A stretch of 32,747 nt of DNA. Source: Gammaproteobacteria bacterium (GTDB lineage Bacteria; Pseudomonadota; Gammaproteobacteria; Arenicellales; Spongiicolonaceae). The DNA is taken from NCBI GenBank assembly GCA_028817275.1, contig JAPPPZ010000053.1, positions 1 to 32,747 of the forward strand, in the 5' to 3' direction. This document shows, piece by piece, positions 8,035 to 23,054 of this stretch. Every line of letters starts with the position of its first letter. Within the stretch, counting starts at the first letter, position 1. The position numbers and the translations under genes are program-made. The notes under the pieces were generated by a model. It was not told where the DNA came from, searched no databases, and saw nothing but the letters and a program-made list of their open reading frames with translations.

Positions 8035-8044
8035 GGCTTTTGCT

Positions 8045-8986: not shown

Positions 8987-9840
8987 GATGTTTTTGCCCT
9001 TTCCAATTCCAGCGCGGCGCGTGCACGCTCGTCCTGGTTCGGCACTTTATGGTGCCATTCCACTTTATTTTGCATGAAAGACACGCCGCGCCCTTTCACA
9101 GTGCGCGCAATAATGCAACTCGGGTGCCCGGCCTTTAATGGCAGGCCGTCAAAGACGCCCATCATTTGATCGATGTCATGGCCATCTGTTTCCGTTGTTT
9201 CCCAGCCGAAAGCACGCCATTTGTTTGCCAGCGGCTCCAGGGTGTTTGTAGTCTCGGTGGGGGCCCCCTGTTGCAAACCGTTCCGGTCAACGATAACGGT
9301 AAGCCTATCAAGCTTAAAATGCGCGGCCGCCATTGCCGCTTCCCAGTTGCTTCCCTCTTGCAACTCGCCGTCACCGAGCAGCGCGAAAGTTCGCCAGGCG
9401 GCGTTTTCCATTTTCGCCGCCATTGCCGCGCCTACCGCCACCGGCAAGCCATGGCCTAAGGGGCCGGTGCTTGTTTCCACACCCGGCATTTTGATTCGGC
9501 TGGGATGGCCATTCAGACGTGACTCCGGCGCCATAAAAGTAGACAACTCGTCTGCGTCAATGAATCCGGCCTCCGCCAGTACCGCGTACAGCGCGCCGGC
9601 GCAATGCCCCTTGCTCATCACGAAGCGGTCCCGATCTGGATTTTCGGGATGCTCCGGTGTGTAGTGCAGAACATGAAAATACAGTGTTGCGAGAATATCC
9701 GCACAGGACAGGTCTCCGCCGATATGGCCGGTGCCGGCATCGCAAATCATTTCCAAATCGCGGGCCCGAACTCGCCGCGCGATTTCACGTATTTGCGCCG
9801 CCCCGCGCAGGTGCTGCTTTTTGTTATTTGCCCGTGGCAT
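8983..9840 (-). CDS. Split transketolase, N-terminal subunit (thiamine diphosphate-binding)
   Basis: The 285-residue protein has the pyrophosphate-binding half of transketolase. The thiamine diphosphate motif is GDGELQEGSNWEAAMAAAH...VDRN. Conserved early motifs AGTGHIGGDLSCADILATLYF and SKGHCAGALYAVLAEAG are present, as is TSTGPLGHGLPVAVGAAMA. It is the first gene of the minus-strand unit N-subunit, C-subunit, FGGY kinase, and has a promoter-like sequence about 40 nt upstream. A GGAGA ribosome-binding site sits 11 nt before the ATG, slightly far. Length matches other split N subunits (about 270-290). Confidence 0.92.
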   Translation of the reverse strand: MPRANNKKQHLRGAAQIREIARRVRARDLEMICDAGTGHIGGDLSCADILATLYFHVLHYTPEHPENPDRDRFVMSKGHCAGALYAVLAEAGFIDADELSTFMAPESRLNGHPSRIKMPGVETSTGPLGHGLPVAVGAAMAAKMENAAWRTFALLGDGELQEGSNWEAAMAAAHFKLDRLTVIVDRNGLQQGAPTETTNTLEPLANKWRAFGWETTETDGHDIDQMMGVFDGLPLKAGHPSCIIARTVKGRGVSFMQNKVEWHHKVPNQDERARAALELERAKTS

Positions 9841-9879
9841 TATTGTTTCTGTCTCCGAAGAATGAAATCACCTGCAGGC

Positions 9880-9908
9880 AATATACTACGAAAGCATGCC
9901 GGTGTGAC
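9880..9908 (-). promoter_or_regulatory. Promoter of the split transketolase-kinase unit
   Basis: On the minus strand, GTCACA (9908-9903, four of six to -35) and TATATT (9885-9880, five of six to -10) are separated by 17 bp. Predicted transcription starts near 9873, giving a leader of about 33 nt. The -35 overlaps the short palindrome TGTGACACA, a possible operator half. Confidence 0.45.
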
Positions 9909-10016
9909 ACATCATTTAATATCAGGCCGGCGGTAAAATAGCGCTTGTCTGCCGTTGTTCACCGCCCGCTCGGCCGGGTATGCGCCGGGGGTGATGGACA
10001 CCGCCGCTTTCAAGGC

Positions 10017-10060
10017 GCCGGCGGCTTAATGCCTGTCATAAAGCCGGTGGCATGTGTTTT
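10017..10060 (+). terminator. Orphan terminator-like hairpin
   Basis: GCCGGCGGCTTAATG (10017-10031) and CATAAAGCCGGTGGC (10037-10051) can pair at 13 of 15 positions, counting one G-T pair, around a 5-nt loop. A run of five T residues follows at 10056-10060. No intact plus-strand gene ends here, so it may be left from a deleted gene, or shield the ABC promoter from read-through. Confidence 0.45.
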
Positions 10061-10123
10061 TCTCTCACCAAATCATTGGCGCATGGCGCCTTGTCTTGTC
10101 CTCATGGATGTGTAAATATTTGC

Positions 10124-10153
10124 TTGACACTGGTATCGCTGTAGTTGCATTAT
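10124..10153 (+). promoter_or_regulatory. Promoter of the ABC importer unit
   Basis: A perfect -35 box TTGACA (10124-10129) is followed, after 18 bp, by CATTAT (10148-10153, four of six). TATACT three bases further downstream is an alternative -10 with a long 21-bp spacer. Either would give a leader of about 200 nt before the permease gene, long enough for regulation by leader structure or a leader peptide. Confidence 0.5.
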
Positions 10154-10213
10154 ACTTCCCGCTTTGCCTGTTCTGCATCGGTGGAGCAGGTGAGGAGAGA
10201 TGAGGAATCAAAG

Positions 10214-10342
10214 ATGACCAGCCGCAATTTCAGGAAATCTTTTTTGCATTTCCCACGTATTGCTCGCGGGGATGCCAGGGGTGCTTCGGTCTCGGGGGCG
10301 GGCGTTGGCAGAGTATTGTATCTGCCTGCTCTGACTGTGTGA
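10214..10342 (+). CDS. Possible 42-residue leader peptide
   Basis: In the long leader of the ABC unit, an ATG at 10214 has a GAGG ribosome-binding site at 10202-10205 (8-nt spacing). It opens a 42-codon frame that begins MTSRNFRKSFLHFPRIARG and ends at the TGA at 10340-10342, 23 nt before the permease start. The product would be basic and has no recognised domain. The ribosome-binding site is the only positive evidence; it may be a regulatory leader ORF, a remnant, or not translated. Confidence 0.25.
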   Translation: MTSRNFRKSFLHFPRIARGDARGASVSGAGVGRVLYLPALTV

Positions 10343-10365
10343 CCGGGCAATAACACGGCAAGGCG

Positions 10366-11322
10366 ATGTATCCACATATGAAGCGCTTTTTTCAGTTTGG
10401 CGAGGCCGGTGGTCCATTCATCGGTCTGATTTTGTTGTGCGTGGTTTTTTCGCTCGCGTCCGAGCATTTTCTCTCGGCGCGCAACGCTCTTAACATTCTG
10501 GACCAGGTCACGGTGCTGGGTATCCTTGCCATCGGCATGACGGCGGTCATCATAATCGGAGGCATTGATTTGTCGGTGGGGTCAGTGCTGGCTTTTGCCA
10601 CGATGACCCTCGGTTGGCTTATGCGGGATGGCGGATTTCCGTTGCCGGTTGCGATTGTCCTTGCAATTCTGGCGGGGGGCGGATGCGGTGTGATTTGCGG
10701 GCTGTTTATCACTATCGGGAGACTCCCTCCGTTTGTGGCCACCTTGGCGATGTTGTCCGGCGCGCGCGGCCTGGCAAACATTCTTACTGACGGGAGGCAA
10801 ATTATCGGCTATCCGGAATGGTTCAGTGAATTGGCAACGGTGCGCCACTTTGGCTTTTTGTCAGTCACGATGAGTGTTTTTATTGTGCTGGCGATTCTGG
10901 GCTGGGTGTACCTGCGTTTTCGTGCGGGAGGCCGCAACCTCTATGCAATTGGCGGCAATGCAGAGGTGGCGCGGCTGGCGGGGATTCGAGTGCGGCTGGC
11001 CAACATCTGGGTGTATGCTTTTTCCGGGCTGCTGGCCGGGGTGGCCGGAGTAGCATTGGCGGCAAGGCTGGATTCTTCGCAGCCCAGCGCGGGCTTCACC
11101 TACGAACTGGACACCATTGCCGCCGTGGTTATCGGTGGTGCGAGTTTGAGCGGGGGCAAAGGCAGTGTAGGCGGCACTATTGTTGGCGTGTTTATTATCG
11201 GCGTATTGCGCAACGGCCTTAATTTGCTCGCCGTTTCACCTTTTGTACAGCAGATTGTTATCGGTGCAGTCATCGCCATTGCAGTGATGATGGATACGCT
11301 CGGGCGCCGCCAGCGCGGTTGA
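10366..11322 (+). CDS. Ribose/xylose-type ABC transporter permease
   Basis: This 318-residue, very hydrophobic protein of the RbsC/BPD_transp_2 family has about eight to ten membrane helices. The family signature GGIDLSVGSVLAFATM is clear, as are GRLPPFVATLAMLSGARGL and the C-terminal IAAVVIGGASLSGGKGSVGG. It would form the homodimeric membrane channel for the binding protein and ATPase encoded next. A second ATG at 10378 is possible. The order permease, binding protein, ATPase is unusual; in most such operons the binding protein or ATPase comes first. Confidence 0.93.
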   Translation: MYPHMKRFFQFGEAGGPFIGLILLCVVFSLASEHFLSARNALNILDQVTVLGILAIGMTAVIIIGGIDLSVGSVLAFATMTLGWLMRDGGFPLPVAIVLAILAGGGCGVICGLFITIGRLPPFVATLAMLSGARGLANILTDGRQIIGYPEWFSELATVRHFGFLSVTMSVFIVLAILGWVYLRFRAGGRNLYAIGGNAEVARLAGIRVRLANIWVYAFSGLLAGVAGVALAARLDSSQPSAGFTYELDTIAAVVIGGASLSGGKGSVGGTIVGVFIIGVLRNGLNLLAVSPFVQQIVIGAVIAIAVMMDTLGRRQRG

Positions 11323-11410
11323 ACTCTCCGCGCTTCAGGTGTGCTATGCTTCCCCGTCAGGTGTTCATTGGGCGCCTGGTTCGTTAACCACATAAAATAC
11401 GGAGGAAACC

Positions 11411-12340
11411 ATGTTTAAAAAACTCATTATGGCCGCAACTGTGGCCTCGCTGTCGCTCGCTTCGTCTGTACAAGCGCACGACCAAAAATACACCATTGGT
11501 TTGGCGGTGGCCAATCTGCAGGCTGATTTCTTCAATTTCATCAAGGAGTCGGCGGAGGAGGAAAGCAGCCGGCTTGGCTACGAAATTATCACCGTTGATG
11601 CCGGTGGCGACTCTGCGAAACAGGTCAGCCAGATTCAAGATCTCATCACGCGGAGGGTGGATGCATTGATTTACATTCCGGCCGGCGCAACTGCAGCAGA
11701 TGTGCCGGTACGCGCGGCGAAGAAAGCGGGCATTCCCGTGGTCAATGTGGACCGCAACACCCAGTCTCCCCCCGGCGACACTTTTATCGCTACTGACAGC
11801 GAGGAAGCTGCGCGTATCCTGGGGGAATACGTTGCCGAAGTTACCGGTGGAAAAGGCGTCGTAGGGGTTGTGCAAGGCCAGTTGGGGACCACTCCCGAAA
11901 TTGCCCGTGACACCGGCTTTGAAAAAGCGCTGGCGAACTACCCCGGGTTGAATACGGTGGAGAAGCAGGCCAGCAAAGGCTGGCACCACGATGAGGGCGT
12001 CTCCATTGGGCAGGATCTTTTGCAGCGCAATCCCAGCATCAACGTCATATTCGGGCGCGCTGATGCCCTGGCCATGGGGGCGGCACAGGCTGTCAGGCTT
12101 GCAAATTTGAGCCACGATGTGCTGGTTGTTGGTTTTGACGGCGACCGGGAAGGGCTTATCGCAGTCAAACAAGGTCGTTTGGCCGCGACAATGACTCAGC
12201 AAACCAAATTGATGGGCAGACTTGCGGTGCGGTTTGCGGTGGATTTGGTTGAAAATCGCTTCGTCCCGGCTGAAATGCTGCTGGATGCGACTTTGACCAC
12301 CAAAGAAAATGTGGACCGCTTTATTGAGGTCCATCCCTAG
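11411..12340 (+). CDS. Periplasmic sugar-binding protein (RbsB-like, Peripla_BP_4 family)
   Basis: The 309-residue product begins with a clear Sec signal peptide (MFKKLIMAATVASLSLASSVQAH, cut after SVQA). The ribose-binding fold follows: IGLAVANLQADFFNFIKESAEEE, DAGGDSAKQVSQIQDLI, NVDRNTQSP and VLVVGFDGDREGL. It would capture the imported sugar or polyol and deliver it to the permease. It has a strong GGAGG ribosome-binding site, and an 88-nt spacer after the permease gene may hold an extra weak promoter, which would help make the binding protein in excess. The ligand is not predictable from sequence alone. Confidence 0.93.
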   Translation: MFKKLIMAATVASLSLASSVQAHDQKYTIGLAVANLQADFFNFIKESAEEESSRLGYEIITVDAGGDSAKQVSQIQDLITRRVDALIYIPAGATAADVPVRAAKKAGIPVVNVDRNTQSPPGDTFIATDSEEAARILGEYVAEVTGGKGVVGVVQGQLGTTPEIARDTGFEKALANYPGLNTVEKQASKGWHHDEGVSIGQDLLQRNPSINVIFGRADALAMGAAQAVRLANLSHDVLVVGFDGDREGLIAVKQGRLAATMTQQTKLMGRLAVRFAVDLVENRFVPAEMLLDATLTTKENVDRFIEVHP

Positions 12341-12355
12341 GCAAGTTGCAAGCTC

Positions 12356-13849
12356 GTGGACACGGAAAGCGCAAACCGCGGCCTTTCCGCGCGCGGCCTG
12401 GGTAAACGCTATGTCCAGACCGAGGTCCTGGTGGACTTTGGTCTGGACGTGCGCCCCGGTGAAATTGTAGCCCTCCTGGGTGAGAACGGCGCCGGCAAGT
12501 CCACGGTTTCATCTATCATTGCCGGCGTTATACAACCGGATTCCGGGCACATGACATGGTGCGGGCGTCCATATGCTCCGGCCACGCCGGGTGATGCTAT
12601 TGCGGCGGGCATCGGGCTTATCCATCAGGAGATTCGGCTGCTGCCGGACTTGTCCATCGCGGAGAATGTATTTGTTGGCCGGTTGCCTGCCCGTAATGGT
12701 GTGGTGGATCGTGAAAAAATTAATAGTGCCGCCAAAAAGCAATTACGCCGCCTGGGCTTGGATGCGCCGCCATCGTGCCTGGTGCGGATGCTGCGGGTTG
12801 CGGCACAGCAGCAAGTGGAAATTGCCAAGGCGCTGTGCCTGCAGTCGAAGCTGCTGATACTGGATGAGCCCACTGCGGCATTAGGCGCCGATGAAACCGA
12901 CCGCTTGTTTTCTCAGATTCGGCGGTTGCGCGAGGATGGCGTTTCTTTCATATATATCAGCCACCGCCTCGATGAAATCCCCCTGATCGCTGATCGAGTG
13001 TTAGTGTTGCGCGATGGGCGGTTGGTCTCGCAGCACGACAATGCGCAGACGCCGATCCATGTTTTAGTCAGGGAAATGGTTGGGCGTAACGTGGACAGAA
13101 TTTTCCCTGAGAGGGACGCCCCGCAAAACGATGAGGCGCTGTCGGTAAAAAATCTGACTGCGGCTGACGGTACCTTTAAAAACATCAGTTTCAATGTGCG
13201 CCGGGGGGAGATTATCGGTATCGCCGGCATCGTTGGAGCCGGGCGAACCGAATTAATGCGCGCTATCAGTGGCGCTGACCCAATCACAGCCGGGACAATC
13301 AAGGTGGATGGCAAAATCGTCCGCATGGCGGGGCCGCGTGATGCTGTTCGCGCCGGTATTGTTCTGGTGCCCGAGGATAGAAAATTGCAAGGGCTGATTT
13401 TGGATCACACTCTCGCTAATAACATCGCCGCCGGAAATTCCGATATCTTTGCTAAAAACGGCTGGGCCTGGCCGGGAAAAATCCACGATTTTGCCCATAG
13501 TGCAATTCTGCGCGTGGGAGTCAAAGGCGATCCTGACCAGCGGGTTGGCGAATTATCCGGAGGCAACCAGCAGAAAACTGTTATCGCCAAGTGGGTTTCC
13601 CGGTCCCCGCGAGTGTTTATTCTGGATGAGCCTACGCGTGGAATTGACGTAGGTGCACGCGCGGCAATTTATGATATGATTGCCAACTTGGCACGGGCCG
13701 GCGCCGCCATCGTCTTGGTTAGTTCTGACTTGGATGAAGTTTTGGGCATGTCGCATCGAACATTGGTGCTCAGCCGTGGCCGGCAGCGGGCCATTCTGGA
13801 AGGGGCGGAAGCAAACCACGAAACGGTTATTAACCTGGCAACGACCTGA
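12356..13849 (+). CDS. Sugar ABC transporter ATPase with two fused ATP-binding domains (RbsA/XylG-like)
   Basis: The 497-residue protein contains two ABC domains. The first has Walker A GENGAGKST (42-50), a degenerate signature (VAAQQQVEIAKAL) and Walker B LLILDEPTAALG. The second has the usual weakened Walker A (GIVGAGRTEL), signature LSGGNQQKTVIAKW and Walker B FILDEPTRGIDVGAR. Length and layout match RbsA-family ATPases (about 500 residues). Translation starts at GTG 12356, 15 nt after the binding-protein stop. The last 16 nt of the gene lie in a perfect 22-bp tandem duplication. Confidence 0.94.
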   Translation: MDTESANRGLSARGLGKRYVQTEVLVDFGLDVRPGEIVALLGENGAGKSTVSSIIAGVIQPDSGHMTWCGRPYAPATPGDAIAAGIGLIHQEIRLLPDLSIAENVFVGRLPARNGVVDREKINSAAKKQLRRLGLDAPPSCLVRMLRVAAQQQVEIAKALCLQSKLLILDEPTAALGADETDRLFSQIRRLREDGVSFIYISHRLDEIPLIADRVLVLRDGRLVSQHDNAQTPIHVLVREMVGRNVDRIFPERDAPQNDEALSVKNLTAADGTFKNISFNVRRGEIIGIAGIVGAGRTELMRAISGADPITAGTIKVDGKIVRMAGPRDAVRAGIVLVPEDRKLQGLILDHTLANNIAAGNSDIFAKNGWAWPGKIHDFAHSAILRVGVKGDPDQRVGELSGGNQQKTVIAKWVSRSPRVFILDEPTRGIDVGARAAIYDMIANLARAGAAIVLVSSDLDEVLGMSHRTLVLSRGRQRAILEGAEANHETVINLATT

Positions 13850-13877
13850 ATCTGACCTGGCAACGACCTGAATCTGA
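13834..13877 (+). repeat. Perfect 22-bp tandem duplication over the ATPase stop codon
   Basis: Bases 13834-13855 are repeated exactly at 13856-13877 (unit begins CCTGGCAACGACCTGAATCT). The first copy contains the ATPase stop TGA (13847-13849), so the protein is unchanged and the duplication only lengthens the spacer to the next gene. The second copy abuts the GAGGAGG ribosome-binding region of the SDR gene. Exact identity points to a recent slippage or duplication event. Confidence 0.95.
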
Positions 13878-13888
13878 GGAGGCGCAGG

Positions 13889-14653
13889 GTGGATATTTTT
13901 CGTCTGGATAGTCAATGTGCTTTTGTCACCGGCGCTGGCAGCGGGATTGGCCAGCGCATCGCCATCGCCCTGGCGGAGGCCGGCGCGGATGTGGGCTGTT
14001 TCGATTTGCCCGGCAGTGATGGAATCGAAAATACGGCCGCCGAGATTAACAAATTGGGGCGTCAATCGATTGTGCTGAAAGGAGACGTGACTTGTGCCGC
14101 TGATTTGGCGGTTGCCGTTGATAAAACCGAGCGTGAGATTGGCCCGGTGTCGGTTGCCGTCAACAGCGCCGGCATCGCTAACGCGGCTCCGGCTGAAAAT
14201 ATGGAAGAAAACCAATGGAAGCAGATGTTGGAGGTGAATTTGACCGGGATTTTTCTTTCTTGCCAGGCCGAGGCCCGGGTAATGCTGCCGCGCGGTGCCG
14301 GGTCCGTGATCAATATTGCGTCCATGTCCGGGACGATTGTCAACCGAGGGTTGTCCCAAGCCCACTATAATGCGTCCAAGGCAGGTGTGGTTCACTTGTC
14401 AAAAAGCCTGGCAATGGAATGGCGTGAGCGCGGTGTTCGCGTCAACTCCGTGAGTCCCGGTTACACCGCCACCCCGATGAATTTGCGTCCTGAAGTGGCC
14501 ACGCAAGTTCAGCGCTTCGAGGCCGATACGCCGTTGGGCAGGATGGCCACCACGGAAGAAATCGCCTGGCCAGTGGTTTTTCTTGCCTCTCCCGCCGCCT
14601 CTTTCTGCACCGGTTTGGATTTAATTATAGATGGCGGCTTTAGCTGCTGGTGA
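13889..14653 (+). CDS. Short-chain dehydrogenase/reductase, probable polyol or sugar dehydrogenase
   Basis: The 254-residue classical SDR has the NAD(P)-binding motif TGAGSGIGQ, an NSAG motif, catalytic Ser in NIASMSG and YNASK as the catalytic Tyr/Lys pair. An Asp at the end of the second strand (CFDLPG) suggests NAD preference. It starts at GTG 13889 after a strong GAGGAGG ribosome-binding site and is the last gene of the ABC unit, so it probably acts on the imported compound, for example oxidising a polyol to a ketose. Fold and cofactor use are secure; the substrate is inferred from context. Confidence 0.9.
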   Translation: MDIFRLDSQCAFVTGAGSGIGQRIAIALAEAGADVGCFDLPGSDGIENTAAEINKLGRQSIVLKGDVTCAADLAVAVDKTEREIGPVSVAVNSAGIANAAPAENMEENQWKQMLEVNLTGIFLSCQAEARVMLPRGAGSVINIASMSGTIVNRGLSQAHYNASKAGVVHLSKSLAMEWRERGVRVNSVSPGYTATPMNLRPEVATQVQRFEADTPLGRMATTEEIAWPVVFLASPAASFCTGLDLIIDGGFSCW

Positions 14654-14663
14654 AGCCGCGGGG

Positions 14664-15452
14664 CTAGGACATGATTAAGCCGCCGTCTACATTGATGGTT
14701 TGGCCGGTGATATAGGCCGCATCATCGGAGGCGAGAAATGCAACCAAGCCGGCCACATCCTCGCCGGTTCCGGCGCGCATCATCGGAATGTTTTTAACCC
14801 ACGACGCCATTAACTCGCCGGGCTGGTAGTTGCCCAGCAAAGCGCCCCATGCCTTGTCGTTGTACGCCCACATCTCGGTGTCAATAATGCCGGGGCAAAA
14901 GGCATTAACGGTGATATTGTCCGATGCCAGCTCTTTTGCCAAACTCTGGGTGATTCCAATCACGCCGAATTTGCTGGCGGCATAGTGAGGAGTGTAAATA
15001 AACCCCTGGCGCGCCTGCCCCGAGGCGGTGTTAATCAGGCGCCCCCCGCGGCCGCGTTTCTTCATGCGGGCGGCGGCCGCCTGGCAGCAGAGAAACACCC
15101 CCTTGGTATTGACCTCCATAATCATGTCCCACTCCGCCACAGTCATGTCTTCCAATTTGGCGATAGTGATGACCCCGGCGTTTTGCACTGACACATGGAC
15201 GGCGCCAAAGTTGCGCTCGGCTTCGTCATAGATTTTATGCACTTGCGCCGCGTCTTTTACATCCGCGACCACGGCGATGGCCTCGCCGCCGTTGGCGCGA
15301 ATTTCAGACGCAACTTCTTCGGCCCGTTCCTCGTTGGCACTCACCACAACCCGAGCGCCTTCGGCGGCAAACCGCAAAGCAATTGCGCGGCCAATGCCGC
15401 GGCTGCCACCCGTGACAACCACAATTTTTTCTTCAAAACGGCGCATGTTCAT
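14664..15452 (-). CDS. Short-chain dehydrogenase/reductase, second island SDR
   Basis: The 262-residue classical SDR has TGGSRGIGRA, a QNAG in place of the usual NNAG, catalytic Ser in NTASGQ, and YAASK. The C-terminal GQTINVDGG is typical of the sorbitol/diacetyl reductase-like SDR group. It is convergent with the first SDR gene (10 nt between stop codons) and has its own promoter. It may perform a second redox step on the same compound, or interconvert stereoisomers. A GAGGTGG ribosome-binding site lies 4 nt before ATG 15452; ATG 15446 is also possible. Confidence 0.9.
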   Translation of the reverse strand: MNMRRFEEKIVVVTGGSRGIGRAIALRFAAEGARVVVSANEERAEEVASEIRANGGEAIAVVADVKDAAQVHKIYDEAERNFGAVHVSVQNAGVITIAKLEDMTVAEWDMIMEVNTKGVFLCCQAAAARMKKRGRGGRLINTASGQARQGFIYTPHYAASKFGVIGITQSLAKELASDNITVNAFCPGIIDTEMWAYNDKAWGALLGNYQPGELMASWVKNIPMMRAGTGEDVAGLVAFLASDDAAYITGQTINVDGGLIMS

Positions 15453-15497
15453 TTTTCCACCTCGGCCACTGTTCTATTTTTCGAATCGGCGGCCGCA

Positions 15498-15526
15498 CTA
15501 TACACCGGCTTATGAAAACCTGCCAT
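15498..15526 (-). promoter_or_regulatory. Promoter of the second island SDR gene
   Basis: On the minus strand, ATGGCA (15526-15521, four of six to -35) and TATAGT (15503-15498, five of six to -10) are 17 bp apart. The leader would be about 40 nt. This implies that island DNA extends at least to about 15526. Confidence 0.5.
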
Positions 15527-15682
15527 AGCTTATTTTTGGCCGCCTCATTCTGAATTCCCGGGGCGTGGCGGTGCCGCCAGTCCTGCCGTTGTGCGGAAAC
15601 GTCAAAAAGACGCCGGCGAACTCGCTGCCATTGCTGGTGAATGTTTGGCCGATGGGGGCGGGGAACACGGTTTTTCCACCGC
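15527..15682. other. Right edge of the island: unassigned sequence next to broken polB
   Basis: No intact gene is seen here. On the minus strand, a frame open through about 15530-15695 encodes a coding-like run including PIGQTFTSNGSEFAGVFLTF, and the opposite strand is also open. The polB frame departs from the polymerase pattern at about 15740, so the foreign sequence probably extends from there into this segment. It may be a fragment of a mobile or repeated element, but no transposase or terminal repeat can be assigned. Confidence 0.4.
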
Positions 15683-17095
15683 TCAGGAATCCATGAGGTT
15701 TCCGACCTTAGGCGTGCCACCGCCGTCCCCGTCCCCGCCAAGTTGCATGCCCAGAGGGTCGACTTTGAAGGTGCGGATGATGCTGGGGTAGAGGCTTTTG
15801 AAATCCAGCAGGAGGACGTTGCGGTAGAGGCCGGGGCGGGAATCGAGGACGTAGCCGCCGGGGCTGGATTCGGCGTTGGCGGCGCGGGACGGGTCCAGGT
15901 CGGGGGCGACGTAGCCGGCGCGGTGGAGGCGGGGGAGGTAGAGGTTGTCAAAAGCGGCCACCGAGCCGCCGTGGCGGCCGAGGGCGAGGCCGGTGAGGGC
16001 GGTGCGGGTGGCGGTGAAGTTCACCAAATCGGTGTGGGCGAAAATTTCGCGCACCAGCCGGCAGTCTTCCAGGTTGTAATGCGCCAGTTCAAACTGCGCG
16101 TCGCGGTACAGGCGTTCAATTTCGCCCATCTTGTCCCCGCTGTCCGCCAGCGCCTTGCCGCGGTCCAGCAATTGGCGGGCGACGAACTCCAGACGGAAAC
16201 TTTCAAAATTCCAGAACGCGGCGCGCAATGTTTCAATGCCGTCCAGCACCACCCGGCCGGGCAGGCGCGCGATGTTGGTTTGAGTCTGGTTTTCCCGCCG
16301 GACAACCGCCGCGCGCTCGCCGCCGCGCGCGATGTCAAAAGGAACGTTGAGCCGCGCGCATGCGCGCTGGAGAACGTCGAGGTCAAAGTTAACCACGTTC
16401 CAGCCAATCAGAACGTCGGGGTCGCGGCGCCGCAGCCAGCGGAAAAATTCGGTGAGCAATTGTGTTTCGTCGCGCACAAAAACCACCGGCAGGCCGCCGT
16501 GGGTGACGCCCCCTTTTTTTTGCGTGCCGTCGTTGACCACGAAAACTTTTTCGGCGCCATCGTCAGCGGCGGCGGCGGAATAGAGGCGGCCGTCGCGGCC
16601 GGTTTCAATGTCCAGGGACAAGACGCGAAACGCCGGCTTGTGCGATGCGCGGCGCAGGCGCGGGTTGGTGAAGACGGTGAAGCCGTCCTGGTGCCGCGCC
16701 TCGCCGTGCACGGTGAACGCGCCGGTGATGAAACGTTCCATCAGAAAACGGTCGGCCGGTTTGACGTCGGATTCGTACAACGCGATGCCGTGGTGCTGCG
16801 CGCGGCGGCGGAACTCCAGCAAATCGGACTGGCGCGAAAAATACACAGCGTCGGCGTCACCGCCGTCCAGTGTTTTAAGTTTCAGCCGGCGGCGCTGGTA
16901 GTTTTGCGCGAGGGCGGCGATTTTTTCATCGGTGATGGCGCGGGGAATAAAGCACACCGCCTGCTGGCCGCGCAGGTGAATGCGCGCCGGCCGGCCCTCG
17001 CCGCCGCCGGCCCACAGCACCACCTCAAGCCCGGCGGCGGTGTCGCGCCAGTGGCGGGTGAGCAGGAACAGCGGCGCGGCGGATTTTTGTGGCAT
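15683..17095 (-). pseudogene. polB: DNA polymerase II gene, truncated at the 3' end (about 470 of about 780 residues)
   Basis: Full-length polymerase II is a family B DNA polymerase with proofreading, used in translesion synthesis and replication restart. The N-terminus (FLLTRHWRDT) and the whole 3'-5' exonuclease domain are intact: DIET (Asp162), NVVNFD (233-238) and YNLED (340-344). Polymerase motif A is present (LLLDFKSLYPSIIRTF, Asp431 in DFKSLYPS). The frame stops about 30 residues later after an unrelated Gly/Asp-rich tail. Motif B (KxxxNSxYG) and motif C (YGDTDS), which hold the rest of the active site, are missing and not found in the following DNA. ATG 17095 is preferred (AAGGA 8 nt upstream, family-like N-terminus) over ATG 17119. 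The product cannot polymerise; an exonuclease-only protein is possible. Confidence 0.88.
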
Positions 17096-17145
17096 AATGC
17101 GAGTCCTTGAAGAACACATTTTACCGGTAGCGGGGAGGCGCTGTG

Positions 17146-18546
17146 ATGAACGTCAAAACCATGCAGAGCAAGAAAGAAAAAAAATCAACCGCGGGTGAAG
17201 CCGGGCGCCGGCACTACTTCACCTTGCACGACAACATGACCGGCAAGTCCTACGAACTGCCGCTGCTGGAAGGCACCGAAGGGCCGCGGGTGGTCGACAT
17301 CCGCAAACTGTACGCCGAGGCCGGGGTGTTCACCTACGACCCCGGCTACACCTCCACCGCCTCGTGCACTTCCGAGATCACTTTCATCGACGGCGACAAG
17401 GGCATTCTGCGCCACCGCGGCTACGCCATTGAGGAACTGGCGGAAAACACCGACTACCTGGATGTGTGCTACCTGCTGCTCTATGGCGACCTGCCGTCGC
17501 CGGCGCAGAAGGCCGAGTTTGACCACACCATCACCCGCCACACCATGTTGCACGAGCAACTCATGGCGTTGTTCAAGGGCTTCCGCCGCGGCGCCCATCC
17601 CATGGCCATCATGGTCGGCGTGGTGGGCGCGCTGTCGTCGTTCTACCACGACGGCTCCGACATCAGCGATCCCATGCAGCGCATGGTGGCCTGCCACCGG
17701 ATGATTGCAAAAATGCCGACCATCGGCGCCTGCGCATACAAGTATTCCATGGGCCAGCCTTTCGTGTATCCCAGCAACGACCTGGACTACGCCGCCAACC
17801 TGCTGAAGATGCTGTTCGGCGTGCCCACCGAGGAGTACGTGGTGAACCCGGTGCTGGCCAAGGCGATGAACCGCATCTTAATTCTGCACGCCGACCACGA
17901 GCAGAACGCCTCCACCTCCACCGTGCGCCTGGCCGGCTCCTCCGGCGCCAACCCGTTTGCGTGCATTGCGGCCGGCATCGCATCGCTGTGGGGGCCGGCG
18001 CACGGCGGCGCCAACGAGGCGGTGCTCAGAATGCTGACCGAAATCGGCGAGCGGAAAAACATTCCGAAATTTATCGCCCGCGCCAAGGACTCCAGGGACA
18101 GTTACCGCCTGATGGGCTTCGGCCACCGGGTGTATAAAAACTATGACCCGCGCGCCAAAGTGATGCGCGAGAGTTGCCACGAGGTGCTGGGCGAGCTCGG
18201 CATTGAAGACCCGCTGCTGGAAGTGGCGATGGAATTGGAGAAAATCGCCCTGGAAGACGAATACTTCATCAAGAAAAAACTCTACCCCAACGTGGATTTT
18301 TATTCCGGCATCGTGCTGCGGGCGATGGGTTTTCCGCCGAGCATGTTCACGGTGGTTTTTGCCATCGGCCGCACGGTCGGCTGGATTGCCCACTGGAAGG
18401 AAATGATCAGCGACCCGGAAAACAAAATCGGCCGCCCGCGCCAGCGCTACAACGGCAAAAAAGAGCGCAAGTTCATCGCCGTGGACACCCGCGAGCAGGA
18501 CAAAGAGGGCGCGCTCAGCGGGCTGAGCTGGCTGTGGCGCGGATGA
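17146..18546 (+). CDS. gltA: Citrate synthase (type II, GltA)
   Basis: This enzyme condenses oxaloacetate and acetyl-CoA to citrate, the entry to the TCA cycle. The 466-residue product is longer than E. coli GltA (about 427 residues), mainly through a charged N-terminal extension of about 25 residues and a longer C-terminal tail. Active-site regions are intact: [21 protein letters not shown] (catalytic His), [15 protein letters not shown] (second His) and VDFYSG (catalytic Asp). The ATG at 17146 is favoured by GGGGAGG 7 nt upstream; a GTG at 17143 is too close to it. It is divergent from polB and convergent with the DUF3179 gene (5 nt between them). Confidence 0.97.
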
Positions 18547-18551
18547 AAAAC

Positions 18552-19646
18552 TCAGCGGTAAATTTTTGACTCGGGATAAAACGCAAGCCAGGCAAAAGCA
18601 AAGTGCACGCCGCTGTCCACCGGCGCCAGGGATTTTCCCTTAAGCGGCCCGGCGGTGGCCTGGCCCAGCAGGTTCCACGCCGACTGCGTTGCGCGGTCCA
18701 CAATTTTTCCGTCGCGCAGCACAAAAAACAATTCCCGCCCGTCCACCACGCGGCTGAATGCGCTGGCCGAAAGTATTTTTCTTGAGGCGGCGATCTCGGA
18801 TTCATCCAGCGCCGACAGGGTGCCGAACTTGCTGAGGGCGACGATTTTCTCGGCGCCGACGGTGTCGTTGATGACTTTTTTCTCGCGCAGCACAGAAAAT
18901 GGATACAGCGTTCTTTGCCCGGCGCTGTGCACGCTCAGCACCCGCGCAACCGGCGGCAGGCGCGGGTCGGCCGGCTGGTCCAGCAGAAATGGCTGGCCGG
19001 CGGTGGTGTCGTAGCCGCGGTAGGGGTTGCGCCCGTAGGGGCGGGTGAAGCCGGTGTCGCGCGAGAGAACCTCACCCCCGGGGTAGGCGGCGCGAAAGTC
19101 GGCGTAGGAAACAATGTTGGAATGCACGCGGCGCAACTGTGCGCCGGCGTAACGGCCGACGATGGCGCCGCCGGTGAACTGCTGCCACCAACTTTCACTC
19201 TGGCGGTCGTACATCACCAGGTCGCTGTGGCGCAATTTTCCGGTGGTGCCGAAGTCCAGCGGCGCGCCGTCCACGCGGCGGTCAAACACGATGGAGGCGT
19301 TGCACAGCGGGCAGAACGTCACCGCCAGCGGGCGGCCGTCGAAGTTGTCGTTGACAATTTCGTGGAAGATTAAAATTTGCAGCGGATAGGCGCGGGCTTT
19401 TTTCCCGCTGCGCAGCACAATCACCGGCTCGGCGTCACCCAGCCACTCGGCCTCGGCGTGGCCGATAAAGCGCGGCCGGTCAATGGCCGGAATGCCGTCC
19501 TTGGGCGGGCCGCCGGAAAGGATCTCCGACAAATCCACCGTCGCCTTGCCAAAATCGGTTTTCCATTCCGCGCCTGCAGCCGCGGCGGCGCATGCCAGCA
19601 GCGCAAACACAAATCCGGCGCCCCATGTTTTTCGCATTGCGTTCAT
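18552..19646 (-). CDS. DUF3179 domain-containing secreted protein
   Basis: The 364-residue protein has a signal sequence (about 1-25, ending AAAAGA) and the hallmarks of DUF3179: AYPLQILIFHEIVND, VTFCPLCNASIVFDRRV with the CPLC cysteines, and DTGFTRPYGRNPYRGYD. The family is exported in many bacteria, but its biochemical function is not known; the CxxC-like motif and conserved His suggest metal or redox chemistry, which is inference. The start may be ATG 19646 or 19637; neither has a clear ribosome-binding site. It stands alone on the minus strand with its own promoter region. Confidence 0.88.
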   Translation of the reverse strand: MNAMRKTWGAGFVFALLACAAAAAGAEWKTDFGKATVDLSEILSGGPPKDGIPAIDRPRFIGHAEAEWLGDAEPVIVLRSGKKARAYPLQILIFHEIVNDNFDGRPLAVTFCPLCNASIVFDRRVDGAPLDFGTTGKLRHSDLVMYDRQSESWWQQFTGGAIVGRYAGAQLRRVHSNIVSYADFRAAYPGGEVLSRDTGFTRPYGRNPYRGYDTTAGQPFLLDQPADPRLPPVARVLSVHSAGQRTLYPFSVLREKKVINDTVGAEKIVALSKFGTLSALDESEIAASRKILSASAFSRVVDGRELFFVLRDGKIVDRATQSAWNLLGQATAGPLKGKSLAPVDSGVHFAFAWLAFYPESKIYR

Positions 19647-19651
19647 CCGGT

Positions 19652-19678
19652 TATAATCCGACTTTCCGCGCGATTATG
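19652..19678. promoter_or_regulatory. Divergent promoter region: DUF3179 gene / small membrane protein
   Basis: A perfect TATAAT (19652-19657, plus) faces the small membrane-protein gene, and CATAAT (19678-19673, minus) faces the DUF3179 gene. No convincing -35 box accompanies the plus-strand box. The whole spacer is only 46 bp. Confidence 0.45.
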
Positions 19679-19692
19679 TAACCTCCGGCGCC

Positions 19693-19881
19693 ATGCTTGC
19701 AAAAATTCTTTTCACCGCGGTGGTGGTTGTCGCGGTTCTGCTGCTGCTGCGGATGAAAAACATTCGCGGCGCGCAGGAAGATGAAAAACAAAACCGCCCC
19801 GGCGCGATGCTTGCGGTGTGGGTTTGCGCCGCCGTTATTGTCGCGCTGGCCGGGCTGTTTTACGCGCTTTACCACGGTTGA
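19693..19881 (+). CDS. Small two-helix membrane protein, unknown function
   Basis: The 62-residue product starts MLAKILFTAVVVVAVLLLLR. It has two hydrophobic helices (about 3-20 and 38-59) joined by a short charged, polar loop (MKNIRGAQEDEKQNRPG). Its stop is 1 nt before the rhomboid ATG, so the two genes appear translationally coupled. A perfect TATAAT lies 35 nt upstream. I do not recognise the family. The hydrophobic pattern and tight coupling support a real gene. Confidence 0.7.
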   Translation: MLAKILFTAVVVVAVLLLLRMKNIRGAQEDEKQNRPGAMLAVWVCAAVIVALAGLFYALYHG

Positions 19882-19882
19882 A

Positions 19883-20470
19883 ATGCACCATTTCCCGCGC
19901 CTCACCCTCACCCTCATCGGCGCCTGCGTTGTGGTGGAACTGGCGGCGCGCTCGCAGTTTGCCGTGGACTTGCGGCCGTGGCTTTTCATCAGCCAGGGGC
20001 CGGCCGGCCTGCCGGAGATTGCCGATGGTGAAGTGTGGCGGCTGCTGACGCCGATTTTTCTGCACTTCGGCCTGCCGCACCTGGTGATTAACCTCGCCTG
20101 GTTGTGGGCCCTCGGCGAGATGGCTGAGCGCGTGTTCGGCGCCGCCGCCCTTGCGCTGCTGGTCACCGCGGTCGGCGTGTTTTCCAACCTGTGCCAGTTC
20201 GCCGCCGGCGGCCCGGCATTCGGCGGCATGTCCGGCGTACTTTACGGCCTGCTCGGATTTCTGTGGATGCAAAGCCGCTTCAACCCCGGTAGCGGCGCGC
20301 GACTCGGCAACCCCATCGTGGTTATGATGCTGGCGTGGCTCGTGCTATGCTGGAGCGGTGTGCTGGAAATTTTCGGCATTCGCGTCGCCAACACCGCCCA
20401 CGCAACCGGCCTCGCCACCGGCCTGTTGCTGGGGTTTTTCAGCGCAAAACTCAGCCGGCGCGGCGCCTGA
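19883..20470 (+). CDS. Rhomboid family intramembrane serine protease (GlpG-like core)
   Basis: This is a six-helix, 195-residue rhomboid without the N-terminal cytoplasmic domain of E. coli GlpG. The catalytic Ser117 lies in FGGMSGVLYG (GxSG) and the catalytic His173 in NTAHATGLATGLLLGF. The HFGLPHLVINLAWLW segment matches the conserved helix-two region and WRLLTPIFLHF the entry loop. Rhomboids cleave membrane helices within the lipid bilayer; the substrates here are unknown. ATG 19883 is chosen because the reading frame before it is the small membrane-protein gene in another phase. Both catalytic residues are present, so activity is expected. Confidence 0.92.
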   Translation: MHHFPRLTLTLIGACVVVELAARSQFAVDLRPWLFISQGPAGLPEIADGEVWRLLTPIFLHFGLPHLVINLAWLWALGEMAERVFGAAALALLVTAVGVFSNLCQFAAGGPAFGGMSGVLYGLLGFLWMQSRFNPGSGARLGNPIVVMMLAWLVLCWSGVLEIFGIRVANTAHATGLATGLLLGFFSAKLSRRGA

Positions 20471-20488
20471 CCAGACATGGGACAAGAC

Positions 20489-21019
20489 ATGAAACTTTTC
20501 GCCTCCCAACTGCTGCTGCTCCTCGCCCTGGCGGCGCCGCAGTTCGCCCACGCCGACATCGGCCGTTTTGTCGGCGTCTACCACGGTTCCCTCAGCGCCC
20601 AGGACAGCCCCGACGGAAAAGAATTGCGCCTGCGGGTGGAGATCAACGAAATCGATGAAGGTTTCAACGTGGAATGGAACACCACCGCGGTGCGCGCCGA
20701 CGGCAAAGCCAAATCCAAAACCTACGCCATTGATTTCATCACCAGCCAGCGCGAAAATGTTTTCTCCTCGGCGATGAAGGCAAACCTGTTCGGCAAACGC
20801 GCCGCCCTCGACCCGATGCGCGGCGACCCCTACTTCTGGGGCCGCATCACCGGCGACACCCTCACCGTCTTCGCCCTCTTAATCAGCGACGACGGCGGCT
20901 ACGAAATCCAGCGCTACGACCGCACCCTGGTCCCCCAGGGCCTGCAGCTCCACTTCACCCGCAGCAGCGCGGGGAAAATCATCAAGACGGTGGAGTCACT
21001 GCTGGTGCGGGAGGAGTGA
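20489..21019 (+). CDS. Exported protein of unknown function
   Basis: The product of about 176 residues has a clear signal peptide (MKLFASQLLLLLALAAPQFAHA) and a mature part rich in alternating polar and hydrophobic residues, typical of a beta-sheet protein (FVGVYHGSLSAQ, ELRLRVEINEIDEGFNVEW, WGRITGDTLTVFALLISDDG). There are no cysteines in the mature part and no known catalytic motif. A calycin-like barrel is a guess. ATG 20489 gives a normal-length signal peptide; ATG 20477, four codons upstream, is possible. It follows the rhomboid gene closely and may share its transcript. Confidence 0.75.
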   Translation: MKLFASQLLLLLALAAPQFAHADIGRFVGVYHGSLSAQDSPDGKELRLRVEINEIDEGFNVEWNTTAVRADGKAKSKTYAIDFITSQRENVFSSAMKANLFGKRAALDPMRGDPYFWGRITGDTLTVFALLISDDGGYEIQRYDRTLVPQGLQLHFTRSSAGKIIKTVESLLVREE

Positions 21020-21042
21020 TGCCGCTGTGGACGCCGGGAGGA

Positions 21043-21330
21043 TTACCGATGATGGCGGCGGCGAAAACGGATATACACATTACGACGGTGACCGACCATC
21101 AAAATGCTCACCGTCAATGTATCATCGTCAATTTGGTAAATAATCCGATAATCCCCCTGACGAATGCGGTAGTAGCATTCTGCATACCCTTGCAACGACT
21201 GACAGCCCCCGGGCCGGGGATTGTCTTCCAGATTATCAATATGGTCGCTTATTTGTCGGCGAATTTTTGCAGATTGTATACCCTGCAATTCCCGCATTGC
21301 GCGATCGTTGATGTTGATGTTATATGGCAC
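21043..21330 (-). CDS. RelE/ParE-type toxin
   Basis: The 95-residue protein has the RelE/ParE fold pattern: a central LQGIQSAKIRRQISDHIDNLEDNPRPGGCQSLQGY, then YYRIRQGDYRIIYQIDDDTLTVSILMVGHRRNVY. The conserved R-x-G-D-Y-R-I-I-Y and H-R-x-x-V-Y elements are as in RelE-group mRNA interferases. It starts at GTG 21330, 6 nt after the antitoxin stop, with a short AAGGA ribosome-binding site. A weak GTG start after the antitoxin would keep toxin below antitoxin level. The target (ribosome-bound mRNA or gyrase) cannot be decided; RelE-like mRNA cleavage is more likely. Confidence 0.9.
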   Translation of the reverse strand: MPYNININDRAMRELQGIQSAKIRRQISDHIDNLEDNPRPGGCQSLQGYAECYYRIRQGDYRIIYQIDDDTLTVSILMVGHRRNVYIRFRRRHHR

Positions 21331-21336
21331 GGTCCT

Positions 21337-21693
21337 TCACCCTCTGATGAATTTTTTCAATTTTTTCCACGGAATGTTCGGCCCGTTCATCCGCTTTTGG
21401 CACAGGGCAATATCCTCCTCCTCCTCTTTGCGCACGAACCCCTCCGCCGTCGCCGCCGGCAAGTGCAGCGGGTTGGTTTTGTCGTGTGCGATGGTTTGCA
21501 TGCCGTGTTTTGCAACCTCATGCACCACCTCGGACAGCGTCCACCCGGACATTTTTGCAATCAGGTTCAACTGGTAAAGCAGTTCCGGGTCAAAGGACAC
21601 CATCTTACGCTCGCCGCCGGGGGGCAGGGAGCGCATGTATGGCTGCTGTGAATATTTTTCGGTGATTTTTCTTGTCGCACCGGTTCTGTTCAT
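21337..21693 (-). CDS. Ribbon-helix-helix antitoxin of the RelE-type toxin
   Basis: The 118-residue protein has a ribbon-helix-helix DNA-binding region at about residues 30-68 (KMVSFDPELLYQLNLIAK, then SGWTLSEVVHEVAKHG). An acidic stretch and a C-terminal tail (EEEEDIALCQKRMNGPNIPW) of the type that wraps the toxin follow. The ATG at 21693 lies 6 nt after a GGAGG; ATG 21699 would touch the ribosome-binding site. It should neutralise the toxin and repress its own promoter. It is somewhat longer than a usual RelB, and the residues before the RHH domain have no assigned role. Confidence 0.85.
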   Translation of the reverse strand: MNRTGATRKITEKYSQQPYMRSLPPGGERKMVSFDPELLYQLNLIAKMSGWTLSEVVHEVAKHGMQTIAHDKTNPLHLPAATAEGFVRKEEEEDIALCQKRMNGPNIPWKKLKKFIRG

Positions 21694-21722
21694 GGTCATC
21701 CTCCAAGGTGTGCCAAGCCGTA

Positions 21723-21752
21723 ACAATACCACCATCCTCACCTCGCTGTCAA
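21723..21752 (-). promoter_or_regulatory. Promoter of the toxin-antitoxin operon
   Basis: On the minus strand, a perfect TTGACA (21752-21747) and TATTGT (21728-21723, four of six) are 18 bp apart. The -35 lies inside the last codons of the LOG-family gene and the -10 just beyond its stop. The leader would be about 23 nt, so the toxin-antitoxin unit is expressed independently of the cluster upstream. Confidence 0.6.
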
Positions 21753-22277
21753 TACCTTCTCCAGCAACTCCCCCGGCTCCCCCGCCACCAGCAGCAAATC
21801 GCGGTGCTCCCTGCGGATGAATCCGCTTTGGTTTGCGCCGGCGATGTGCTGCAGGAGGGTGTCGTAGAATCCGGCCACGTTGAGCAGGCCGCAGGGTTTG
21901 CGGTGGAAGCCGAGTTGGCGCCAGGTCCACACTTCAAATAATTCCTCCAGCGTGCCGAGGCCGCCGGGCAGGACGATGAAGGCGTCGGACAGTTCGCCCA
22001 TCAGCGCCTTGCGCTCGTGCATGTTGTTGACCACGCGCAGGTCGGCGGCTGGGTTGGCCTGTTCCTTGGCAATCAGCCGTTGCGGGATAACGCCGATGGC
22101 GCGGCCGTCGGCGGTGCGCACGGCATCGGCGACCGCGCCCATCATGCCTTCGCCGCCGCCGCCGTAGACCAGGCCGATGCCGCGCGCCGCCATCAGCCGC
22201 CCCAACTGCCCGGCCGCGGCCAGGTATTCGCCGCGCGCGCCGGGTTGCGCGCCGCAGAAGACGCAGATGGAGTTCAC
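21738..22277 (-). CDS. LOG family protein (cytokinin riboside 5'-monophosphate phosphoribohydrolase-like)
   Basis: The 179-residue Rossmann-like protein begins VNSICVFCGAQPGARGEYL (GTG start) and carries GLVYGGGGEGMMGAVADA, NNMHERKALMGELSDAFIVLPGGLGTLEELFE, including the PGGxGT nucleotide-binding motif and catalytic Arg/Glu. The family splits ribose-5-phosphate from nucleoside monophosphates and was earlier annotated as lysine decarboxylase. In bacteria its role may be nucleotide salvage or clean-up. The start immediately follows the SDR stop (TAG then GTG, no spacer), so it depends on the upstream cluster for translation. Confidence 0.92.
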   Translation of the reverse strand: MNSICVFCGAQPGARGEYLAAAGQLGRLMAARGIGLVYGGGGEGMMGAVADAVRTADGRAIGVIPQRLIAKEQANPAADLRVVNNMHERKALMGELSDAFIVLPGGLGTLEELFEVWTWRQLGFHRKPCGLLNVAGFYDTLLQHIAGANQSGFIRREHRDLLLVAGEPGELLEKVLTAR

Positions 22278-23054
22278 CTACAGCGTCCGCGTTTCAGTGT
22301 TGCCGTCCACGCACAGCACCTGGCCGCTGACCAGGCGCGCGCGGTCGGAAATTAAAAACGACACCGCGTTTGCAATGTCGCCGGCGTCCACAAAAGTGCG
22401 CATGGACGCCTGCCGTTCATATGCGCGGCGGAGGTCCTGCTCGGCGATGCCGCGCGCCGCCGACTCGGCGGCAATCACCCGCGCCATGCGCGCGCCGTCC
22501 ACCGATCCAGGGCACACGGCGTTGACGCGGATGCGGCGCTCGCCGAGCTCCATGGCCAGGGTTTGAGTCAGGCCCACCACCGCCCACTTGGACGCCGCAT
22601 ATGGCGCGCGCAGCGGGTAGCCCATGACGCCGGCGGTGCTGGAGATGTTGACGATGCTGCCGCCGGACTTCATGGCCGGTACCGCGCGCCGCGTACACAA
22701 AAAATGCGCGCCGATGTTCACCCGCATTACCCGCTCCCAGTCCTCCGCCGTCACCTCCTCTACCGGCGCGGTGGGGCCGGCGATGCCGACGTTGTTTACC
22801 AGCGCGTCGACCCCGCCCCACTCGCCGAGCAGTTCGTCAAACACCGCGTCCACATCGGAAACGTCGGCCACATCGGCGCGGCGGCAAATCATGCCGGGGA
22901 ATTGCGCCTGGCATTCGCCGAGTTGTTGTTCGTTGACGTCGGCGATGCACACCGAGGCGCCCTCTTCGTGCAGCAGCGCGGCGATGCTTTTGCCGATGCC
23001 GTCGGCGCCGGCCGTCACCACCACGCGCCGGCCGTGGTGCGCGCCGCCGGTCAC
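22278..23054 (-). CDS. Short-chain dehydrogenase/reductase (canonical YxxxK)
   Basis: The 258-residue SDR has TAGADGIGKS (glycine motif), VNNVG, catalytic Ser in NISSTAG and YAASK with the catalytic Tyr/Lys. It starts at GTG 23054, overlapping the stop of the previous SDR by four bases (GTGA). The product ends with the unusual VDGNTETRTL. Acting with the neighbouring SDR after pyk is likely from the coupling, but the substrate is not known. Confidence 0.88.
   Translation of the reverse strand: MTGGAHHGRRVVVTAGADGIGKSIAALLHEEGASVCIADVNEQQLGECQAQFPGMICRRADVADVSDVDAVFDELLGEWGGVDALVNNVGIAGPTAPVEEVTAEDWERVMRVNIGAHFLCTRRAVPAMKSGGSIVNISSTAGVMGYPLRAPYAASKWAVVGLTQTLAMELGERRIRVNAVCPGSVDGARMARVIAAESAARGIAEQDLRRAYERQASMRTFVDAGDIANAVSFLISDRARLVSGQVLCVDGNTETRTL

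What the first reader, a model, noticed from the sequence alone, without database searches (positions are those of the whole stretch)
15683..17095. DNA polymerase II truncated directly after motif A, keeping the exonuclease domain
All three exonuclease motifs and motif A are intact, while motifs B and C are lost and replaced by a short unrelated tail. The retained part has no visible frameshifts, so the truncation may be recent or the exonuclease-only product may be kept.
Basis: seen in the sequence. Interest (0 to 1): 0.5.

Follow-up and report, generated by a model that had tools for sequence, protein, structure and literature searches.

The report
DNA polymerase II split into two genes
In this small group of uncultured bacteria the gene for DNA repair polymerase II has been cut in two and its halves now sit at separate places in the genome, each kept intact by selection, so the enzyme is probably assembled from two separate proteins.

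Summary
Window 15683-17095 (-) encodes the N-terminal 470 residues of a bacterial DNA polymerase II (PolB), ending just after motif A. The missing half is not lost: it is a separate intact 337-residue gene in the same genome, contig C71:11424-12437, with motifs B and C and the clamp-binding end QLSIF. The only other held genome of the genus (and family), G001, has both halves cut at the same point, 93% and 92% identical, inside long syntenic blocks, so misassembly is very unlikely. Both halves evolve under purifying selection since the split (omega 0.31 and 0.20). In three other families the order is gltA-polB-abhydrolase; here gltA stays with the N-half and the abhydrolase with the C-half: a rearrangement cut polB in place, in a variable loop. 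Of 125 other genomes with a match, 121 have one unbroken frame; none is shown to be split. Most likely a two-subunit Pol II sharing its polymerase site between two chains; assembly and activity are inferred. Split family-B polymerases are known in archaea and phages.

The parts
15683..17095 (-). polB-N: N-terminal half of DNA polymerase II (470 aa): N-terminal domain, 3'-5' exonuclease domain and the first palm segment with motif A. Its partner polB-C lies outside the window on contig C71:11424-12437 (-), 337 aa.
   Evidence: E. coli Pol II chain residues 5-440; partner: (chain residues 452-783)
16601..16618 (-). Exonuclease motif I region (residues 160-165, LDIET; motif name recalled)
   Evidence: D162 and E164 invariant in 46 rows
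16379..16405 (-). Exonuclease motif II region (residues 231-239, GWNVVNFDL)
   Evidence: F237 and D238 invariant
16061..16078 (-). Exonuclease motif III region (residues 340-345, YNLEDC)
   Evidence: Y340 and D344 invariant
15779..15805 (-). Polymerase motif A (residues 431-439, DFKSLYPSI)
   Evidence: D431 and S434-S438 invariant
15683..15739 (-). Split point: Gly/Asp-rich linker, short tail and stop codon (residues 453-470), in the variable loop between motif A and the fingers
   Evidence: same length and stop in G001
17143..18546 (+). gltA (citrate synthase), the ancestral divergent neighbour of polB, still beside the N-half
   Evidence: Pfam; gltA-polB adjacency in relatives L166, L167, L172

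Best explanation
An intact ancestral polB (Pol II) gene, located between gltA and an alpha/beta-hydrolase gene, was cut by a chromosomal rearrangement inside the variable loop between motif A and the fingers, before two species of this genus diverged. Both pieces survived as independent genes. polB-N makes the N-terminal domain, the exonuclease and the palm strand with the motif-A aspartate. polB-C makes the fingers, the rest of the palm with motif C, the thumb and the clamp-binding tail. The two proteins most likely associate non-covalently into a working Pol II whose two-metal polymerase site takes its aspartates from both chains, while the clamp tether (on C) and proofreading (on N) come from different chains. 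Shown: both halves exist, the split is shared by two species, the ancestral gene order, post-split purifying selection, and retention of nearly all conserved residues. Inferred: expression, association, activity, and a role in repair or replication restart as for E. coli Pol II (recalled).
For: The own genome holds exactly two PF00136 places, and they are complementary: profile 20-76 on C162 and 118-423 on C71. Against E. coli Pol II (1q8i) the products cover residues 5-440 and 452-783. G001 has both halves full length at 93% and 92% identity, in syntenic blocks; C71 aligns over about 15.7 kb at 93.8%. There are no stops or frameshifts, and omega is 0.31 (p 1e-6 against neutrality) and 0.20 (p 1e-10); two control frames that are not genes (one out of frame, one antisense) give 1.25 and 1.30 with 15 and 3 stops. 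In L166, L167 and L171/L172 the order gltA-polB-abhydrolase is seen, and each half keeps its old neighbour. Of columns at least 98% invariant in 99 full-length sequences, 45 of 46 (N) and 45 of 46 (C) are kept in both species. QLSIF is kept. AlphaFold: polB-N alone folds its N-terminal and exonuclease parts well but not residues 401-470 (10-residue means 32-66), whereas the equivalent motif-A strand and helix of a full-length relative lie in blocks of 90-96, so motif A appears to need the other half. Precedent: phage 25 gp43A/43B co-purify and have polymerase activity (PMC2988022, passage read).
Against: No expression or interaction data exist. Omega is higher than in fused polB of other lineages (about 0.06-0.16 for the N part and 0.05-0.11 for the C part in the pairs), so some relaxation is possible, although genes in the same two genomes range from 0.06 to about 0.5. 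Only two genomes have the split and both are fragmented draft assemblies. polB-C has no obvious ribosome-binding site before its ATG (own reading). Trees of the two halves were poorly resolved and placed the lineage inconsistently. The low confidence of the isolated motif-A segment may partly reflect missing context in the prediction.
Confidence: 0.77

Rival explanations
1. Decaying pseudogene pair: the rearrangement destroyed Pol II and the two open frames simply have not yet accumulated stops.
For: Omega is about 2-3 times that of fused polB in other lineages; Pol II is patchily present: 29 of 109 order genomes match.
Against: All divergence between the two species post-dates the split, yet nonsynonymous changes are strongly depleted (p 1e-6 and 1e-10), no indel or stop is seen, and nearly all invariant residues are kept.
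Confidence: 0.12
2. The N-half is kept as a stand-alone exonuclease and the C-half serves another purpose or is passive.
For: The exonuclease domain is complete and predicted to fold alone with high confidence.
Against: The motif-A segment and polB-C, useless to an exonuclease, are both conserved; the clamp peptide on C is kept.
Confidence: 0.07
3. Assembly or binning artefact: polB is really continuous.
For: Both genomes are fragmented drafts (166 and about 240 contigs); a Gly/Asp-rich GC-rich stretch lies at the break.
Against: Two species with about 93% nucleotide identity show the same two junctions, each inside long colinear blocks, with their own stop and start codons. The halves are not at contig ends.
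Confidence: 0.02
4. The halves are ligated by split-intein trans-splicing, as in Nanoarchaeum equitans.
For: A known solution for split family-B polymerases (PMC4104785, passage).
Against: Only about 18 residues follow the last homologous residue of N and about 12 precede the first of C; no intein family matches. The IntN described in PMC10189870 is only 15 aa (passage), but its partner piece is far longer than the lead of polB-C.
Confidence: 0.01

Closest known systems
Bacterial DNA polymerase II (PolB, E. coli Pol II; PDB 1q8i, 3k57)
   Same: Both halves together align to residues 5-440 and 452-783, with all exonuclease and polymerase motifs and the clamp tail.
   Different: Two separate genes on different contigs instead of one polypeptide; the loop equivalent to 441-451 is replaced by two chain ends.
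Split PolB of Methanobacteriales (Kelman 1999, seen only as cited in PMC4104785) and of Nanoarchaeum equitans
   Same: A family-B polymerase encoded in two pieces; in N. equitans the pieces are non-adjacent.
   Different: Archaeal PolB3; linked by those authors to inteins. Here the polymerase is bacterial, no intein is seen, and the cut separates motif A from motifs B and C (the split position of the archaeal cases was not checked).
Gene 43A/43B of Aeromonas T4-like phages 25 and 44RR (PMC2988022)
   Same: A split family-B polymerase whose halves co-purify and are active; no splicing described in the passage.
   Different: Phage genes split by an inserted sequence or homing endonuclease; here a chromosomal rearrangement put the halves in unrelated neighbourhoods.
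Split family-B polymerase of RNAP-encoding (phiKZ-like) jumbo phages (PMC7598289, one passage)
   Same: Described there as a split family-B polymerase.
   Different: A phage core trait; here a derived state in one bacterial genus.

Membership tests
Bacterial DNA polymerase II (PolB) | Three exonuclease motifs | tested here: met
   Invariant catalytic columns present in polB-N
Bacterial DNA polymerase II (PolB) | DNApolII_N, exonuclease and DNA_pol_B domains | tested here: met
   Over the Pfam cut-offs, shared between the two products
Bacterial DNA polymerase II (PolB) | Polymerase motifs A, B and C | tested here: met
   A in polB-N (DFKSLYPSI); B (KIIMNSFYG) and C (YGDTDS) in polB-C; motif names recalled
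Bacterial DNA polymerase II (PolB) | C-terminal clamp-binding peptide | tested here: met
   QLSIF at the end of polB-C in both species; similar ends in most of 30 relatives printed; its role as clamp peptide is recalled
Bacterial DNA polymerase II (PolB) | Single polypeptide (the usual state, not strictly defining) | tested here: not met
   Two genes on two contigs in 2 of 2 genomes of the genus
Bacterial DNA polymerase II (PolB) | DNA polymerase and proofreading activity | not testable with these tools
   Needs purified proteins
Split-intein polymerases (N. equitans type) | Intein halves at the two chain ends | tested here: not met
   Short non-intein ends, no intein family match
Split family-B polymerases (archaeal and phage) | Two chains that assemble into an active enzyme | not testable with these tools
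   Inferred from joint conservation only

The most novel reading that the evidence does not exclude
A cellular bacterial DNA polymerase whose polymerase active site is built in trans from two unlinked genes without intein splicing, so that proofreading exonuclease (polB-N alone) and polymerase (polB-N plus clamp-bound polB-C) can be expressed in different ratios. Gene fission would thus have turned a repair polymerase into a switchable exonuclease/polymerase pair.
Probability: 0.15. Interest if true: 0.8.

Novelty: new variant of a known kind. Interest (0 to 1): 0.55.

Why it matters
Natural splits of DNA polymerases are rare and mark where a polymerase can be cut and still work. Here the cut passes between motif A and motifs B/C, so the metal-binding aspartates of one active site come from different genes. 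The ancestral locus can be read from relatives, and the split is old enough to have passed through a speciation with both halves conserved. It gives a testable case of how an enzyme survives sudden fission of its active site, and a natural template for split Pol II constructs. It also warns that annotation pipelines would probably call both halves partial genes or pseudogenes (not checked).

Tried and rejected
Misassembly was rejected because G001 has the same two junctions. A second complete polB in the genome was looked for: only the two half-gene places exist. An intein at the ends: none. Other split polB in the order, class and phylum samples: the short frames of G012 and G443 are contig edges where the N- and C-parts abut; G079 (621 aa, one TAG flagged) reaches the contig end; G302 (635 aa) matches next to a contig end and was not examined further. 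A reciprocal exchange with the argH neighbourhood: in six relatives examined no window gene lies near argH, so the partner of the rearrangement was not found; a large insertion between the halves (at least 15.7 + 5.0 kb by contig ends) cannot be excluded. A shared LexA box: no CTGT-N8-ACAG in the window or C71; L045 has one 1.5 kb upstream of its polB, not directly in front of it. Trees of the halves were inconclusive. A regex count of loop lengths returned nothing. Literature: eight searches listed no paper on a split bacterial chromosomal Pol II; the library is open-licence only, so this is weak evidence of absence.

Full report
Observation. Window 15683-17095 on the minus strand is an open frame of 470 residues with the Pol II N-terminal domain, the family-B exonuclease domain and only the first part of the polymerase domain. 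Exonuclease and motif-A residues are invariant in an alignment of 46 sequences. The frame ends about 18 residues after its last residue homologous to E. coli Pol II.

The missing half. A search of the window's own genome (G000, 2.02 Mb in 166 contigs) with PF00136 gave two places: the window's (profile 20-76) and C71:11535-12356 (profile 118-423). On C71 a 337-residue frame starts at ATG 12437 (-), divergent from argH (start 12496), and ends at 11424, 7 bases before an alpha/beta-hydrolase gene on the same strand. It aligns with E. coli Pol II 452-783. The two products together miss only the residues equivalent to 441-451, a loop of variable length in relatives. The C-half has motif B (KIIMNSFYG), motif C (YGDTDS) and the C-terminal QLSIF.

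Not an artefact. The held genomes of the family are two, both of one genus. G001 has polB-N at C125:12087-13499 (93% identity over residues 1-470) and polB-C at C83:17637-18650 (92%, residues 1-337). Around both halves the two species are colinear: window 10242-22505 in three main blocks and C71 1780-17449 in one block, at about 92-94% nucleotide identity. The stop of N, the start of C and the intergenic sequence before C are conserved. The halves are not at contig ends: 15.7 kb of C162 lies beyond the end of N and 5.0 kb of C71 beyond the start of C (own arithmetic).

How it arose. In L166 (G005), L167 (G006) and L171/L172 (G012), three different families of the order, polB lies between a divergent gltA and a co-directional alpha/beta-hydrolase (G012 spans two contigs, and other genes may lie between gltA and polB or between polB and the hydrolase in some of them). 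In the other relatives examined (L168, L169, L170, L173) neither neighbour was found beside polB. In the split genus gltA is beside polB-N and the hydrolase beside polB-C. The ancestral locus was therefore cut inside polB. argH is not near polB in the six relatives examined, so the junction argH/polB-C is new, as is the junction polB-N/SDR gene. Both ends carry Gly/Asp codon runs, a possible site of the break (inference).

Selection. Since the split is shared, all differences between the two species post-date it. polB-N: 39 synonymous and 37 nonsynonymous changes, omega 0.31; polB-C: 44.7 and 31.3, omega 0.20. A one-sided binomial test against neutrality gives 1e-6 and 1e-10. Other genes tested in the same two genomes range from 0.06 to about 0.5; the highest, 0.55, is an incomplete comparison of 75 codons. 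Two frames that are not genes give 1.25 and 1.30 with stops. Within polB-N residues 381-451 have omega 0.064, but on six changes only. Against my reading: fused polB in the pairs, mostly Caballeronia and Burkholderia, has lower values (about 0.06-0.16 and 0.05-0.11), so the split gene may be somewhat relaxed. Of alignment columns at least 98% invariant in 99 full-length rows, 45 of 46 in N and 45 of 46 in C are kept in both species; the two exceptions are G to A and S to A. Some of the 99 rows are the same gene from overlapping loci or close relatives.

Structure. AlphaFold of polB-N (46-row alignment) gives mean pLDDT 86.6, with most blocks of the N-terminal and exonuclease part above 90, but blocks from residue 401 on at 32-66 and the motif-A strand not formed. 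In the full-length relative L039 the equivalent strand (406-416) and helix (419-426) are formed in blocks of 90-96. This fits a palm that is completed only by the second chain. The two-chain complex could not be modelled here.

How unusual. Searches with polB-C matched 29 of 109 genomes of the order, 28 of 369 of the class sample and 77 of 398 of the phylum sample. Removing overlaps and the two split genomes leaves 125 genomes: 121 have one frame of 777-863 residues; G012 and G443 are cut by contig edges with the two parts abutting; G079 and G302 have frames of 621 and 635 residues at contig ends. Of 80 named loci kept by a separate scan (from 564 relatives), 75 have one frame of 766-985 residues and 5 are cut by contig ends. 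The split is known only from 2 of 2 genomes of this genus.

Comparison with what is known. Split family-B polymerases are known in Methanobacteriales and N. equitans, where intein events are invoked (PMC4104785, passage), in Aeromonas T4-like phages, where the halves co-purify and are active (PMC2988022, passage), and in jumbo phages that encode RNA polymerases (PMC7598289, passage). Family-B genes with split inteins are also known (PMC10189870, passages). No listed paper in eight searches reports a split bacterial chromosomal Pol II. So this probably works like those enzymes, by assembly of two chains, but by descent it is a bacterial Pol II; it is not a split-intein system.

Verdict. A genuine, inherited fission of a DNA polymerase II gene into two separately located, conserved genes (about 0.95 confident), most likely making a two-subunit enzyme (about 0.77). 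Surprising to a specialist but with precedents outside bacterial chromosomes: interest 0.55.

Noticed in passing
window 8000-15500: A stretch with G+C of about 54-60% against mostly 60-71% around it, holding a sugar ABC transporter (permease, binding protein, ATPase) and two short-chain dehydrogenases next to the break in polB; present in G001 at least from 10108.
   Followed up: partly
window 15535-15670: About 136 bases between polB-N and the next gene are absent in G001; a 62-base part has a 76% match at G000:C145:8525-8586.
   Followed up: partly
L045 3144-3159: A perfect CTGT-N8-ACAG (LexA-like) box about 1.5 kb upstream of the intact polB of the closest syntenic relative; none exists in the window or in C71.
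   Followed up: no
C71 (L003) 12438-12495: The 58-base intergenic region between argH and polB-C is almost unchanged between the two species although the first codons of polB-C vary, suggesting a conserved divergent control region.
   Followed up: no
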